From the NCBI GenBank assembly GCA_902802115.1, contig CADCKW010000001.1, forward strand, positions 278,700-342,699: a stretch of DNA of 64,000 nt. The letters are read 5' to 3'. Below the pieces are notes generated by a model. It worked only from the letters and a program-made list of their open reading frames with translations, made no database searches and had not been told where the DNA came from. This DNA comes from an uncultured Pseudomonadota bacterium. GTDB lineage: Bacteria > Pseudomonadota > Alphaproteobacteria > Rs-D84. The position numbers and the translations under genes were made by a program. Shown here piece after piece: positions 58,768 through 63,743 of this stretch (position 1 is the stretch's first letter; the number at the start of each line of letters is the position of its first letter).

Positions 58768-58800
58768 AAAAAAATACCGGCATTTGCCGGTATTTTTTAT
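58768..58800. terminator. Bidirectional intrinsic terminator
   Basis: A-run, perfect stem ATACCGGCA/TGCCGGTAT, loop TT, T-run. An additional palindrome ATGCCGGCGAATGCCGGC lies at 58703. The two together fill the gap after the autotransporter. Confidence 0.85.
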
Positions 58801-59732
58801 CTAATTTTGCCCGGGTTTTGCATTGTTGCTATATCACGACGCGCACCATTAAATAATGCCGCCATATCTTTTAATGCACGTTTGCATACTGGCTTTGGTG
58901 CCACATAACGTTTCGGCATAGAACCACCTTTTAATACAAAAGTTTCGCGTTTGCCTTTTGGATTTTTTGTTTTTTTGGGTTGTTTTTTCTTTTTGGTTGG
59001 CAACATTCCATATGCTGTTAATGTATGGTTATATTGTTTTGTTTTTTGTTGTACAGATTTTTCATATTCTGCAACCGCTTTGTTTAATTCGTTAATCCAA
59101 TCTCTATCTTGCAACCACAAATCGTATAAATTTTCTTTTTCTGCATCGTCGGCGGCAATTTGACGCATAGTCCAAATTGTGCTAGCCCACATTCTATTAT
59201 CGTATTCTTGGCGTTCAATTTTCTTTTGTTCTTGTTGTTCGTATTCTGCGACCAACTGTTTCAAATTTTCTTCGCGTTCGAAATCAATATGTGATGCGAC
59301 CTCAATTATGCCCATACAGATTCCAATTACAAACAATGCTGCGATAATATCATCATCAGTAAATTCATCATTTGTGACAGGGATATTTTTTGATGATTCT
59401 TTATGTTTGCGTTTTGTATTAATGTTTTGTGATACCATACGTTTCTTGTGTTTTTGCGCAGATAATACTTTGCGAATTTCATCACTTGGTACATATGTTT
59501 CAGTCATTGCGCCGCTTTGTTTTTCTTTGTTTAAATTGTATGGTTGTTCAATCACAGTTTTTTGAATGTTTATGTGTGATGGAATTTTTTTTGAAGTCAC
59601 CAGATTTGTTGGTACAAAATTCATTGGTGTTTTTACTGTGTTTTTAACTGGTTGTTTTTTCTTGATATAACGCACAGGCAAACTCATCGCTTGAATATCA
59701 TTATATACGTTTTCTGTTCCCATATTATTCAT
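58797..59732 (-). CDS. Basic protein with one membrane segment, unknown
   Basis: 311 residues from ATG 59732, with AAGGAA before it. Very Lys-rich. One hydrophobic segment at about 129-147 (IIAALFVIGICMGIIEVASH) divides a basic, probably disordered N-terminal part from a Gln/Glu-rich coiled coil (EENLKQLVAEYEQQEQKKIE) and a basic tail ending MQNPGKIR. No family recognised; structural or scaffold role possible. Confidence 0.6.
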   Translation of the reverse strand: MNNMGTENVYNDIQAMSLPVRYIKKKQPVKNTVKTPMNFVPTNLVTSKKIPSHINIQKTVIEQPYNLNKEKQSGAMTETYVPSDEIRKVLSAQKHKKRMVSQNINTKRKHKESSKNIPVTNDEFTDDDIIAALFVIGICMGIIEVASHIDFEREENLKQLVAEYEQQEQKKIERQEYDNRMWASTIWTMRQIAADDAEKENLYDLWLQDRDWINELNKAVAEYEKSVQQKTKQYNHTLTAYGMLPTKKKKQPKKTKNPKGKRETFVLKGGSMPKRYVAPKPVCKRALKDMAALFNGARRDIATMQNPGKIR

Positions 59733-59837
59733 ATTTTTTCCTTTTTCATTATAATATAACAAAGTAAGACTCATACTATCACATAAATTGTTTTAGTCAA
59801 TGATAAAATGCCGGTTTTTTCGTTTTTTTTATAAAAT

Positions 59838-59868
59838 ATACCCCCTGATAAAAAATCACAGGGGGTAT
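59838..59868 (-). terminator. Hairpin after the FtsK-gamma-fusion gene
   Basis: A perfect 10-base stem ATACCCCCTG against CAGGGGGTAT with loop ATAAAAAATCA. On the minus strand it lies 45 bases after the gene's stop and is followed by A/T-rich sequence (ATTTTATAAAAAAAA). It probably ends transcription of the two-gene unit, although the U tract is weak. Confidence 0.6.
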
Positions 59869-59912: not shown

Positions 59913-60965
59913 TTAATCCAAACAAGATTTAAATATCTCGTGATATAAAATTTCCCCTGTTTTGGATGTCGGGGTCAGCCAGAATGTCTGGGAACCACCA
60001 GTATAGTGAACATTTGGCAAATCTTGTTTTAATTCAGGAATAAATTCCCGTAAAGTTTTTGCAATACTGCTGGATTCATATGAACCACGAATAAATATAT
60101 GCTTTGTTGGGTCATGAATAATTTGTTTAATAAATTCAATTGCCATTGTGCTGGACGGCAATTTACCAGATACAATCAAATCATTCAGTTTGTTATTCCA
60201 CGCATTAGAATGATAAGGACACAATTCAATATCGCAAAACAAATTTGCAATCATGCGTTTGACATATACGATTGGCAAATCCACACCATTGATTTGGATA
60301 CTTTGTCCGACATTTTGTAATCCAAACTTTTTTAACCACCATTTTGCGCCATCTGTATTTGCCAATTCAGGATCTAAATAATAAAAAGGATACGCCATAT
60401 TTTTTTGATTTATTACATCGTTTGTGATTTTTTGCAATTGCGCATCAGACCAATTTTTATATTCTTGGGCATATGGGATACCGGCGCGCGGATTCAAATT
60501 TATCATAAAACATTTTGCCGTCGCCAAATTTCCAACATATGGTTCGCATTGCAAGTTTGGGTGAATTTTGTTGCGCCCAGAATCTTTCTGTATTTCGGCA
60601 TTTGAAATAATTAAGTTTGCTTTTTCTAATTCTTGGTATTCACCATCCAAAATACTGGTTCCGTTGTAAAATTTCGCGTTGCGCCAGAATTTAACGATTG
60701 GTAATTTATCCAGAATTTTTTGGTCGTGTTTTGCGTATTCTGCACTGATTTTTTGCATTTCTGCGACGGTTGGCAAATCATGGCACAATACGGTTCTTTT
60801 GCGATTTTCGTCCAATGGTGAAACAATGCCGTCTTGTTCCATCATGTTTAATAAATCGACCGCATCTTCATAACTGATGTCTAAATTGCGTTGCAGATAA
60901 GAAACACTTGGTTTTTTATCTGTTATCACTAATTGCACTGCATCTTGATAAAGTTTGTTTTTCAT
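59913..60965 (-). CDS. FtsK-gamma-like winged helix fused to an unknown domain
   Basis: 350 residues; start after GGAGG, 19 bases downstream of the AAA+ gene. Residues 1-60 match the FtsK gamma domain: YQDAVQLVITDKKPSVSYLQ then RNLDISYEDAVDLLNMMEQD and GIVSPLDENR. In FtsK this winged helix reads KOPS sequences and activates XerCD. Here no motor domain follows. The remaining 290 residues have EPYVGNLATAKCFMINLNPR (141-160), PFYYLDP (193-199) and ELCPYHSNAW (247-256), a pattern I have seen in uncharacterised proteins that may have a uracil-DNA-glycosylase-like fold. That fold is a guess. The operon partner is a double AAA+ ATPase. Confidence 0.75.
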   Translation of the reverse strand: MKNKLYQDAVQLVITDKKPSVSYLQRNLDISYEDAVDLLNMMEQDGIVSPLDENRKRTVLCHDLPTVAEMQKISAEYAKHDQKILDKLPIVKFWRNAKFYNGTSILDGEYQELEKANLIISNAEIQKDSGRNKIHPNLQCEPYVGNLATAKCFMINLNPRAGIPYAQEYKNWSDAQLQKITNDVINQKNMAYPFYYLDPELANTDGAKWWLKKFGLQNVGQSIQINGVDLPIVYVKRMIANLFCDIELCPYHSNAWNNKLNDLIVSGKLPSSTMAIEFIKQIIHDPTKHIFIRGSYESSSIAKTLREFIPELKQDLPNVHYTGGSQTFWLTPTSKTGEILYHEIFKSCLD

Positions 60966-60983
60966 GTTTAGCCTCCATGTTGT

Positions 60984-63035
60984 TTAAAAACCAATTTTTT
61001 GCACGTTGTGTGATTTGACGGATTGTTCTTGTAATAACATGTCTAATAATTCGTCTGGATTTGTTATATCCAAAATTTCAGCCTTGTTTTTTACAACAAC
61101 AAAATCCCCAGGAGCCAAATTGACGCATTTTTTAATATCTGCATCATTAACAGTTTGACCAAAAAATTCGTTGAACGCAATTAAAACCTGTTTAGGTGTT
61201 AAAAAGTCATATTTAACCTTGAATGTAAATCTGCGCAAAGATGCAGTGTCCAAAGAATCCATTATGTTGGTTGTACAAATAAACGGGAAATCGGCTTGTT
61301 CCATCTGGGTCAGCATTTCATTGACAGAACTGACCTCCCATGAACGTTGGGCTTTGTTGCGGTCTTGCAAGAAAGAATCTGCTTCGTCAAAAACCAGAAT
61401 TGCTTTTTTTGAACGCGCCTCGGCAAAAGCATTTGCAATATTTTTTTCTGTTTCCCCAACATAAGAACCTTTTAAATCGCTGGCGCGTTTTTTGACGATT
61501 GGCATATTCAACACATGTGCCAGATGTGATGCAAATGCGGTTTTACCGGTCCCCGGTGCGCCGTATAAACATAACGAAAATTTATGAAGTTTTTTCTTGG
61601 CAATTCTGTCTGCCAACATGTTTAAATCTGTGTCGGTGTTTAATAATTCTGTATTAAAATTATCAGGCTTAACTGTGTCTTTTTTCTTGCGGCCATGTAA
61701 TGTTTCCAAAAAAGAATTCAAAGTATATGGAACCATGTCTAGATTTCCGGTGATTTCTGCATTTCTCACCGCGTTATCCAAAATACCCAATGGCACATCT
61801 GGTTCTTTGATTTCTTGGGACATTTTTTCATAGTCAAATTGAACATTGTGTTTTTTAAACACGCCTGCCCAAACATCTTTTCTGGTGTCATCATCAGGTG
61901 TTGAAATTTCTGCGGTCAAAGAAAATCTGCGCAAACAAGAATTTGGAATTTCGCGTATGCTATGTACAACCCAAATCACAGGTGTTGCATTGTTTTCCAA
62001 TAATCTGTGCAAAGTTAATTTTTCATTATTGCGCCCAGGAAATCTGTCTTGTTCTAAAATATCTTCGGCATCATCAAACAATAATACGGCATTTGAATCT
62101 GTTTTTAATAATTTTTGCATTTGTTTTAATTTGTTGCGTCTGGCATCGGTTCCTGTTTCGTCACCACAACCCGAATACAGACGCAAATTTGCATCGTTGC
62201 ACACCGCAACGGCAAAAGATGTTTTGCCAGAACCAACCGCGCCATGCAACAAAATATTTACACCGCGAATTTTTGATTGAACTGACTTTTGCAACAAAGT
62301 TTTAATATTTTTAAATGTATCTGCCATATGTAGAAAATTATCAATATGTAAATCGCTTGATAAAGATTTACCAATCAAAGCAACGCGAACTTCTTCGGTG
62401 GATTTAAAACGCGTGCGCAGTAATTTTATAAAACCGTCATGCAGACGTATTGAATCATATTTTTGTGTTAAAATATTCATTTCAAACAGGGTGGTGTTTG
62501 GTTCCAGCATTTGTTTAACATTGCCTAACGGTATGGCGCACATGGCGGCAAAGAAAGGGAAGTTTTCTTCGCAAATCATATCGTCCATTACTGGCAAATC
62601 GAACGATTCCAACATTTCTCGCAACATAGGATTTTTTTGTGCCATTAAAAAACATTGGACCAGTACGCGTTGTTTTTGTGGCAAATTCAAAGCATCAAAA
62701 ACCATAGATAATTTTGTATCGAATCCAGGATTTGTTATATCTGTGATTTTTACTTTTGATTTAATATCTTCGATTATTTTTTCTGTGTCTGGCGAAATAT
62801 TTTCCACAGAGCATTTTTCTTTGTTGTTTAAAATATCGCGCAACACAGATATTTTTTCGGCATCTGTCACAGATTCAGGCAAAGATGTTAATAAATTATG
62901 TATGTCCGCATTAAACAGGGCACCAAAATACCGTTCCAACCGTTCCAGAAAACAAAATTCTGTCAAAGGTTGCAAAGGACTATTTACCAAGTTTTTTAAA
63001 TAAAACGCATTTGCTTGCAATTGTTTATCCGTCAT
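60984..63035 (-). CDS. Double AAA+ ATPase, Cdc48-like architecture, unknown role
   Basis: 683 residues. An N-terminal helical domain (about 1-240) precedes two AAA+ modules. D1: Walker A GAVGSGKT (265-272), Walker B LLFDDAED (318-325), SCLRRFSL as arginine-finger region. D2: Walker A GAPGTGKT (492-499), the pore-loop-like KGSYVGETE, Walker B LVFDEADSF (547-555), and SLRRFTFKV. Two active sites suggest a hexameric unfoldase or remodelling machine. GGGAGG is the ribosome site. It shares a 19-base gap with the FtsK-gamma-fusion gene, so the two probably act together. No homologue with a known task is recognised. Confidence 0.85.
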   Translation of the reverse strand: MTDKQLQANAFYLKNLVNSPLQPLTEFCFLERLERYFGALFNADIHNLLTSLPESVTDAEKISVLRDILNNKEKCSVENISPDTEKIIEDIKSKVKITDITNPGFDTKLSMVFDALNLPQKQRVLVQCFLMAQKNPMLREMLESFDLPVMDDMICEENFPFFAAMCAIPLGNVKQMLEPNTTLFEMNILTQKYDSIRLHDGFIKLLRTRFKSTEEVRVALIGKSLSSDLHIDNFLHMADTFKNIKTLLQKSVQSKIRGVNILLHGAVGSGKTSFAVAVCNDANLRLYSGCGDETGTDARRNKLKQMQKLLKTDSNAVLLFDDAEDILEQDRFPGRNNEKLTLHRLLENNATPVIWVVHSIREIPNSCLRRFSLTAEISTPDDDTRKDVWAGVFKKHNVQFDYEKMSQEIKEPDVPLGILDNAVRNAEITGNLDMVPYTLNSFLETLHGRKKKDTVKPDNFNTELLNTDTDLNMLADRIAKKKLHKFSLCLYGAPGTGKTAFASHLAHVLNMPIVKKRASDLKGSYVGETEKNIANAFAEARSKKAILVFDEADSFLQDRNKAQRSWEVSSVNEMLTQMEQADFPFICTTNIMDSLDTASLRRFTFKVKYDFLTPKQVLIAFNEFFGQTVNDADIKKCVNLAPGDFVVVKNKAEILDITNPDELLDMLLQEQSVKSHNVQKIGF

Positions 63036-63108
63036 ACGCGCCTCCCTGTGTGTTTTTGATTAAAATTGTTCTTGAATCTTTCGATTCGATATGATTATAA
63101 GAACCCGG

Positions 63109-63127
63109 TTGGACAAAATTGGTCCAA
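63109..63127 (-). promoter_or_regulatory. Inverted repeat upstream of the AAA+ gene
   Basis: TTGGAC (63109-63114), six bases, GGTCCAA (63121-63127). On the minus strand a TATAAT lies 11 bases downstream (63097-63092). The repeat covers the -35 region, so an operator is plausible. A second small palindrome GAATC/GATTC lies in the leader at 63074-63087. Confidence 0.4.
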
Positions 63128-63148
63128 TTTTTTGTTTTTTTAATAAAA

Positions 63149-63180
63149 ATACCGTTAATGTAATGAAAATACGGTATTTT
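63149..63180 (-). terminator. Intrinsic terminator after the Cys-rich small gene
   Basis: Stem ATACCGT/ACGGTAT with a 17-base loop and flanking A and T runs; on the minus strand it follows the stop codon at 63190. Confidence 0.6.
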
Positions 63181-63189
63181 TTATTGTGA

Positions 63190-63585
63190 TTATTTTGATA
63201 ACATAAAAAATATGGCTTTCAGTTTTTTATATGCGGCGCGGGCATTGTCGTATTGTTCTTTGATTTCAAAATATTTGATGTTTGCCGCGCGATTGCAACA
63301 ATCGCAATTATATGTGCATGGCACTTCAAAAGAAAAATAAGGACATGTTTCACCAGCCGATACTGGAATAAAAGAATCAGGCACACAATTAACAATGCGA
63401 CAAAAATCTTTATTTGGACCGGCGGTATATGTGTTATTTTCCTCGCCTGGTTGGACTAAATTTTCATATCGAATTTTATTATATGCCTCGTCGCGTTGTT
63501 TTTTTAAATCTTTTACTTGTTTATGACTGAATTGAACATCACACCAACGAACCCGGCGTGATTTATTAAACAAATTTTTTCCCAT
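63190..63585 (-). CDS. Cys-rich protein of unknown function
   Basis: 131 residues from ATG 63585, preceded by AAAGG; the upstream 30 codons are less plausible. Cysteines cluster in two blocks: CRIVNCVPDSF and GETCPYFSFEVPCTYNCDCC. No signal peptide is visible, so they may bind metal in the cytoplasm rather than form disulfides. A charged helix precedes (HKQVKDLKKQRDEAYNKIRY) and another closes the protein. Not recognised. It is upstream of the AAA+ gene on the same strand, but a terminator lies between. Confidence 0.55.
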   Translation of the reverse strand: MGKNLFNKSRRVRWCDVQFSHKQVKDLKKQRDEAYNKIRYENLVQPGEENNTYTAGPNKDFCRIVNCVPDSFIPVSAGETCPYFSFEVPCTYNCDCCNRAANIKYFEIKEQYDNARAAYKKLKAIFFMLSK

Positions 63586-63743
63586 GGCACAAATCCTTTG
63601 GTTTTGGTTGATAGTAAAACACGAACATCGGCGACATTGCCAGCCTCTAATTGTCATCAATAACGATGGTATCATGAATTTTTATTATATCAAGAAAAGG
63701 TTAGTATGTACTTTTTAGATGACTTTATTTGACAAATAAATAT

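What the first reader, a model, noticed from the sequence alone, without database searches (positions are those of the whole stretch)
59913..63035. Two-gene system: double AAA+ ATPase plus FtsK-gamma DNA reader fused to an unknown domain
Seen: two adjacent minus-strand genes, 19 bases apart, sharing one promoter region. The first has two intact AAA+ sites (Walker A at 265-272 and 492-499, acidic Walker B in both). The second starts with a domain nearly identical in pattern to FtsK gamma (SVSYLQRNLDISYEDAV, MMEQDGIVSP), which in FtsK reads oriented KOPS DNA sites. Known: FtsK gamma normally sits at the C-terminus of a motor. Here it is N-terminal, has lost the motor and gained a 290-residue domain, while a different ATPase lies next door. 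I infer a DNA-directed remodelling or defence machine. I know of no named system like this.
Basis: partly seen in the sequence, partly recalled or inferred. Interest (0 to 1): 0.85.

Follow-up and report, generated by a model that had tools for sequence, protein, structure and literature searches.

The report
FtsK-gamma fused to Brig-like DNA glycosylase
A tiny rumen bacterium carries a two-gene operon whose second protein joins a piece of the chromosome-segregation motor FtsK to what looks like a phage-fighting DNA base-removing enzyme, beside an ATP-driven partner; it is probably a rare, untested variant of a recently discovered antiviral strategy.

Summary
Gene A (60984-63035, -) is a 683-aa double AAA+ ATPase. 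Gene B (59913-60965, -) starts with a true FtsK gamma winged helix (Pfam 7.6e-19; model matches 2VE8, TM 0.94). Three corrections follow. [quoted passage not shown] B 5e-4), and four members place one Glu (E247 in B) on the same model column. Second, the gamma helix has lost all three KOPS-reading residues, so KOPS-directed action is unlikely. Third, AAA1 is degenerate; only AAA2 is canonical.

The exact A-B pair was found only in the window and in rumen MAG RUG13870. Two other MAGs encode gamma and the glycosylase-like domain as separate adjacent genes without A nearby. A-type ATPases occur in about 10% of sampled Pseudomonadota without a fixed partner, though one relative is followed by a second glycosylase-like protein. 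Between the two species A, gamma and half of the glycosylase domain are closely similar, while the other half looks swapped for a divergent allele. Best reading: an arms-race antiphage base-excision module, untested. New variant of a known kind.

The parts
60984..63035 (-). Gene A: 683-aa double AAA+ ATPase
   Evidence: ORF; Pfam AAA 2.6e-39, two stretches; PHROG phrog_10401 'ATPase' over residues 102-683, 5.9e-77; dN/dS 0.08 against the RUG13870 copy
62304..63035 (-). A residues 1-244, N-terminal region without a recognised domain
   Evidence: no Pfam family among those shown has its best stretch here
62220..62243 (-). A Walker A of AAA1 (GAVGSGKT, 265-272)
   Evidence: family alignment
62061..62084 (-). 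A Walker B of AAA1, LLFDDAED: catalytic Glu replaced by Asp; sensor-1 Asn (residue 358) is His
   Evidence: 18-sequence alignment
61539..61562 (-). A Walker A of AAA2 (GAPGTGKT, 492-499), canonical
61374..61397 (-). A Walker B of AAA2 (LVFDEADS), canonical
60966..60983 (-). 18-nt A-B spacer with GGAGG ribosome-binding site for B
   Evidence: sequence
59913..60965 (-). Gene B: 350-aa FtsK-gamma / Brig-like glycosylase fusion
60783..60959 (-). B residues 3-61: FtsK gamma winged helix; KOPS-reading residues N/R/E replaced by E33/D37/N40
   Evidence: Pfam PF09397 7.6e-19; Foldseek TM 0.94 to 2VE8; residues
59916..60782 (-). B residues 62-350: Brig-like, UDG-superfamily domain
   Evidence: NCBIfam NF047634 antiviral_Brig1 E 5e-4 for B, 7 of 10 family members; profile links
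60480..60500 (-). B motif 1, NLNPRAG (156-162); Asn158 invariant in the family
   Evidence: alignment A2
60207..60230 (-). B motif 2, IELCPYHS (246-253); E247 maps to Brig1 model position 143, beside essential Brig1 E147
   Evidence: PMC11078745
59949..60458 (-). Swapped block, about B residues 170-339: 55-80% DNA identity to RUG13870 inside about 90-95% identical surroundings, synonymous sites saturated
59839..59868 (-). Stem-loop after B, likely transcription terminator
   Evidence: -18.9 kcal/mol, z -4.2
63036..63189 (-). Upstream leader, presumed shared promoter of A and B
   Evidence: position only; promoter scan not above chance

Best explanation
B is a DNA glycosylase of the Brig kind (UDG superfamily) carrying an FtsK gamma winged helix that was taken from FtsK and changed. 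It would flip out and excise a particular, probably modified, base in invading phage DNA, leaving abasic sites that stop replication. The exchanged half of the domain would set which base is recognised. The gamma domain is a docking module, more likely for a protein than for KOPS DNA because its recognition helix has become acidic. A is an AAA+ ring with a nucleotide-binding but probably weakly hydrolysing AAA1 and an active AAA2; it would load B onto DNA or remodel the glycosylase-DNA complex. Shown here: the domains, the operon layout, purifying selection on A and on gamma, and the exchanged half. Inferred: glycosylase activity, the antiphage role, and A acting with B.
For: NCBIfam Brig1 is the only recurrent family hit of B's C-terminal domain: B 8.1e-4 whole protein and 5e-4 domain alone, RUG13870 copy 3.5e-4, Rhizobium plasmid relative 4.4e-4, a third lineage 0.0018-0.0019, 7 of 10 members at best 2.2e-4. 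Four members place the Glu of IELxPYHS on the same model column, 143, close to the essential Brig1 E147; Photobacterium-type members have Asn there, as classical UDGs do (PMC11078745). Profile comparison: B's domain aligns with the N-terminal domain of the protein 68 bp downstream of the A homolog in genome G079 (score 36.5; best of about 37 decoys 23.2), and that family aligns with host UDGs (27.6, decoys up to 21.4), with one member hitting DNA-deoxyinosine glycosylase at 8.3e-4. So A-type ATPases precede two different glycosylase-like fusions. In other genomes A relatives lie near WYL regulators, McrBC and Cas4-like nucleases. Gamma, A and B 62-171 evolve under purifying selection (omega 0.06-0.13) while B 172-340 is replaced.
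Against: All Brig1 hits are far below the curated cut-off (about 20 bits against 230). The direct profile comparison of B's domain with UDGs is not above decoys. AlphaFold of the domain is poor (pLDDT 54, pTM 0.57) and finds no fold match. No defence gene was recognised next to the window's pair. A-B adjacency is limited to two related species.
Confidence: 0.55

Rival explanations
1. A and B are neighbours with separate jobs: B is a self-sufficient Brig-like glycosylase, and A is a widespread stand-alone ATPase that happens to sit beside it.
For: A relatives occur in 31 of 299 sampled Pseudomonadota genomes without a fixed partner; gamma plus glycosylase-like domain occur without A nearby in RGIG6783 and RGIG9986; Brig1 acts alone (PMC11078745).
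Against: 18-nt spacing in one apparent transcription unit, kept in RUG13870; a second A relative is followed by another glycosylase-like fusion.
Confidence: 0.3
2. The gamma domain works on Xer recombination: it binds the host recombinase, activating it for a mobile element or tying B to dif.
For: FtsK gamma fused to Xer recombinases, or a 9-residue piece of it, activates XerCD (PMC5052618); B keeps Q1288 and R1289 equivalents; RGIG MAGs encode a free 58-residue gamma.
Against: R1292, G1294 and N1296 equivalents changed to D, S and E; the host recombinases lack the partner Glu183/184; no dif-like site in the window.
Confidence: 0.08
3. KOPS-guided DNA remodelling: gamma reads oriented sites and A provides the motor.
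For: True gamma fold.
Against: All three KOPS residues substituted, two by acids; net charge of the domain -2 against +3 in host FtsK; A resembles AAA+ remodellers, not FtsK motors.
Confidence: 0.05
4. B's second domain is a UDG-fold sensor or binder without glycosylase activity, for example a nucleotide or modified-base sensor that triggers A.
For: Only remote similarity to active glycosylases; some UDG-fold families may lack activity (general knowledge, not tested).
Against: Motif-1 Asn and the motif-2 acid are kept in all close relatives.
Confidence: 0.15

Closest known systems
Brig1 / Brig3 antiphage DNA glycosylases (PMC11078745, PMC13160076)
   Same: Remote profile match; motif-1 Asn and motif-2 acid in matching order; patchy, rare distribution; Brig3 also lies in a two-gene operon
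   Different: B carries an FtsK gamma domain and lies after a double AAA+ ATPase; similarity far below the family cut-off; substrate unknown
FtsK gamma domain (PF09397, 2VE8/2J5P)
   Same: Sequence and predicted fold
   Different: N-terminal, without the motor domain; KOPS-reading residues replaced; acidic recognition helix
IetAS (PADLOC; AAA+ ATPase IetA plus subtilase IetS)
   Same: A's AAA2 resembles the IetA AAA domain (4.9e-31)
   Different: A has two AAA modules and no subtilase beside it; NCBIfam IteA score 93 against a cut-off of 510. True IetAS pairs exist in G085 and G035
PHROG phrog_10401 ATPase
   Same: Match over residues 102-683 of A (5.9e-77)
   Different: No function assigned; viral-contig relatives did not show glycosylase-like neighbours by HMM

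Membership tests
FtsK gamma domain | Profile match above Pfam gathering score | tested here: met
   67.6 bits against 30.6
FtsK gamma domain | Winged-helix fold | tested here: met
   Foldseek 2VE8 TM 0.94
KOPS reader | N1296, R1300, E1303 (E. coli) | tested here: not met
   E33, D37, N40 in B
FtsK translocase | FtsK motor domain in the same protein | tested here: not met
   no motor domain match in B
Brig1 (NCBIfam NF047634) | Score above curated cut-off 230 bits | tested here: not met
   about 19-20 bits; superfamily-level relation only
UDG superfamily / Brig-like | Motif-1 loop with catalytic-site polar residue, then motif-2 acid or Asn | tested here: met
   N158 and E247; column 143 in four members
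UDG superfamily / Brig-like | UDG-like alpha/beta fold | tested here: inconclusive
   low-confidence model, no fold match; strand order compatible
UDG superfamily / Brig-like | Base excision activity | not testable with these tools
   needs purified protein
IetAS | IetA plus adjacent subtilase IetS | tested here: not met
   no subtilase found beside A; IteA score below cut-off
AAA+ ATPase | Walker A/B, sensor-1 and Arg finger in each module | tested here: inconclusive
   all in AAA2; AAA1 has DD Walker B and His at sensor-1

The most novel reading that the evidence does not exclude
An ATP-driven base-excision immune machine. A double AAA+ ATPase works with a DNA glycosylase tethered by a domesticated FtsK gamma domain, and the substrate-recognising half of the glycosylase is exchanged between species like the specificity subunit of a restriction system.
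Probability: 0.3. Interest if true: 0.78.

Novelty: new variant of a known kind. Interest (0 to 1): 0.57.

Why it matters
Glycosylase-based antiphage defence was first reported in 2024 (PMC11078745), with few members described. A remote branch with its own docking domain, a possible ATPase partner and an exchangeable recognition half would widen that family and give testable candidates for new modified-base specificities. It would also be an example of an FtsK gamma domain recruited away from chromosome segregation.

Tried and rejected
KOPS-directed motor (reading residues lost). Xer/dif activation (host recombinases lack the partner Glu pair, no dif-like site in the window). A as IetA. B as phage-borne: no relatives in the phage collection (searched with a distant relative) or in three viral-contig scans. 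Pfam and PHROGs show no family for B's second domain. PDB sequence search of the domain: no meaningful hit. AlphaFold with 4-5 sequences gave poor models of the domain, and Foldseek on it gave nothing. Direct profile comparison of the domain with host UDG, Mug and Ung failed. A search for Brig1-family members in 200 Pseudomonadota genomes, meant for a direct profile comparison, found none. A constant glycosylase partner for A across the phylum was not found. Adjacency to recognised defence genes in the window's own neighbourhood was not found.

Full report
What is there. The window lies in a 0.95-Mb genome; its closest named relatives among the hits are MAGs titled uncultured proteobacterium (RUG13870) and Alphaproteobacteria from sheep rumen and yak reticulum. 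Gene A (60984-63035, minus) and gene B (59913-60965, minus) are 18 nt apart, with a ribosome-binding site before B. A strong hairpin follows B (59839-59868, z -4.2). The layout is that of a two-gene transcription unit; the promoter was not demonstrated.

Gene B, first domain. Residues 3-61 are FtsK gamma: Pfam 7.6e-19, PDB FtsK gamma chains by sequence, and a confident winged helix matching 2VE8/2VE9. It resembles the gamma domain of the host clade's own FtsK (SYLQRRLGIGYNKAAGFMERMEQEGIVS against SYLQRNLDISYEDAVDLLNMMEQDGIVS), which suggests origin from FtsK. The residues shown to read KOPS in E. coli and Vibrio cholerae are N1296, R1300 and E1303 in E. coli numbering (PMC2533119). In B they are E33, D37 and N40, while the host FtsK has N, G and E. 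The XerD contacts (PMC5052618) are half kept: Q1288 and R1289 are retained, R1292, G1294 and N1296 are changed. The host recombinases themselves lack the E. coli partner Glu183/184, so that map cannot be transferred. Gamma in the window and in RUG13870 is under purifying selection (omega 0.10), so it is in use.

The fusion boundary is confirmed independently. In two other MAGs (RGIG6783, sheep; RGIG9986, yak) a 58-residue free gamma protein (Pfam 1.8e-19) is encoded directly upstream of a separate gene for the second domain, followed by a 47-residue gene that is identical in both.

Gene B, second domain. Pfam and PHROGs have no family for it. Distant relatives, all hypothetical proteins, occur in Rhizobium, Variovorax, Photobacterium and other genomes. 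Invariant features include FW, the Asn of an NP motif (N158 in B), PY.S and a C-terminal Arg. Among 18,950 NCBIfam models the only recurrent match is antiviral_Brig1 (7 of 10 members, best 2.2e-4, B 5e-4). In the four members whose match spans the region, the Glu of IELxPYHS falls on model position 143, assuming no gap between it and the match end. Brig1 needs E147, which takes the place of the Asn that contacts the base in classical UDGs (PMC11078745). Photobacterium-type members have Asn at this column. The small offset between model and protein numbering is assumed, not checked.

A second link comes from genome G079. Its A homolog is followed 68 bp later by a protein whose N-terminal part has the motifs GINPSGLEF and HLDIYPW. 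Profile comparison joins that family to B's domain (score 36.5, best decoy 23.2) and to host UDGs (27.6, decoys up to 21.4) in collinear order. Its Leptospira relative matches DNA-deoxyinosine glycosylase at 8.3e-4. The NPSxxE motif and the Asp resemble Brig3 N50, E55 and D127 (PMC13160076). These are remote matches, far below family cut-offs. The structure models of the domain are too poor to settle the fold.

Gene A. Two AAA modules follow a 244-residue N-terminal region. AAA2 is canonical. AAA1 keeps Walker A but has DD for DE in Walker B and His for Asn at sensor-1, in both B-bearing species and against nearly all relatives; it probably binds but poorly hydrolyses ATP (inference). A-like proteins are present at full length in about 18 of 142 family genomes and in 31 of 299 sampled Pseudomonadota at E <= 1e-40. 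In the family, 15 of 18 other A loci carry a member of one protein cluster in the stretch read, often divergent and next to A; a representative is a WYL-domain regulator. Nearby genes include McrBC, DUF2779/Cas4-like nuclease and HNH or GIY-YIG genes. Across the phylum A has no constant partner, and no glycosylase-like neighbours were seen.

Evolution of the pair. Against RUG13870, A (dS 0.33, omega 0.08), gamma and B 62-171 are closely similar, and so is the DNA downstream of B. B residues about 172-340 fall to 55-80% DNA identity with synonymous sites saturated (pS 0.77). Protein identity in that block is 62%, hardly above that to the RGIG6783 protein (56%), whereas upstream it is 93% against 61%. 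This is best explained by recombination that exchanged the C-terminal half of the glycosylase domain, the half holding motif 2. It is the pattern expected of an arms-race specificity region (inference).

Judgement. The KOPS and DNA-reading inference does not stand. The unknown domain now has a likely identity. The two-gene system remains a reasonable hypothesis on narrow phylogenetic support.

Noticed in passing
L061 7635-9082 (genome G041, contig 3): A second, broken copy of the A-type ATPase beside a DUF2779/Cas4-like nuclease gene and another conserved gene.
   Followed up: partly
L063 7374-11036 and L064 7307-10975: IetA-IetS antiphage pairs in two relatives (PADLOC 1.4e-144 and 3.2e-228 for the L064 pair).
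   Followed up: no
L108 3003-4792 (Leptospira plasmid NZ_CP043895): A gene for a UDG/deoxyinosine-glycosylase-like protein starts 23 bases after a thymidylate synthase gene, hinting at modified-thymine biology.
   Followed up: no
L069 8857-9000 and L070 4893-5036: A 47-residue gene, identical in both genomes, directly after the split gamma and glycosylase-like genes.
   Followed up: no
window 63190-63675: A 161-residue ORF of unknown family upstream of A whose region does not align with RUG13870 (about 57% identity).
   Followed up: no
L056 11545-12951, L058 4577-5983, L048 6664-7710: FtsK/SpoIIIE-type ATPases near A relatives; the one tested (L048) resembles SspH and mad8, and the L056 one appears to carry N-terminal ankyrin-like repeats.
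   Followed up: no
window 58797-59774: A 325-residue protein without Pfam match, with a hydrophobic stretch, conserved next to B in RUG13870.
   Followed up: no
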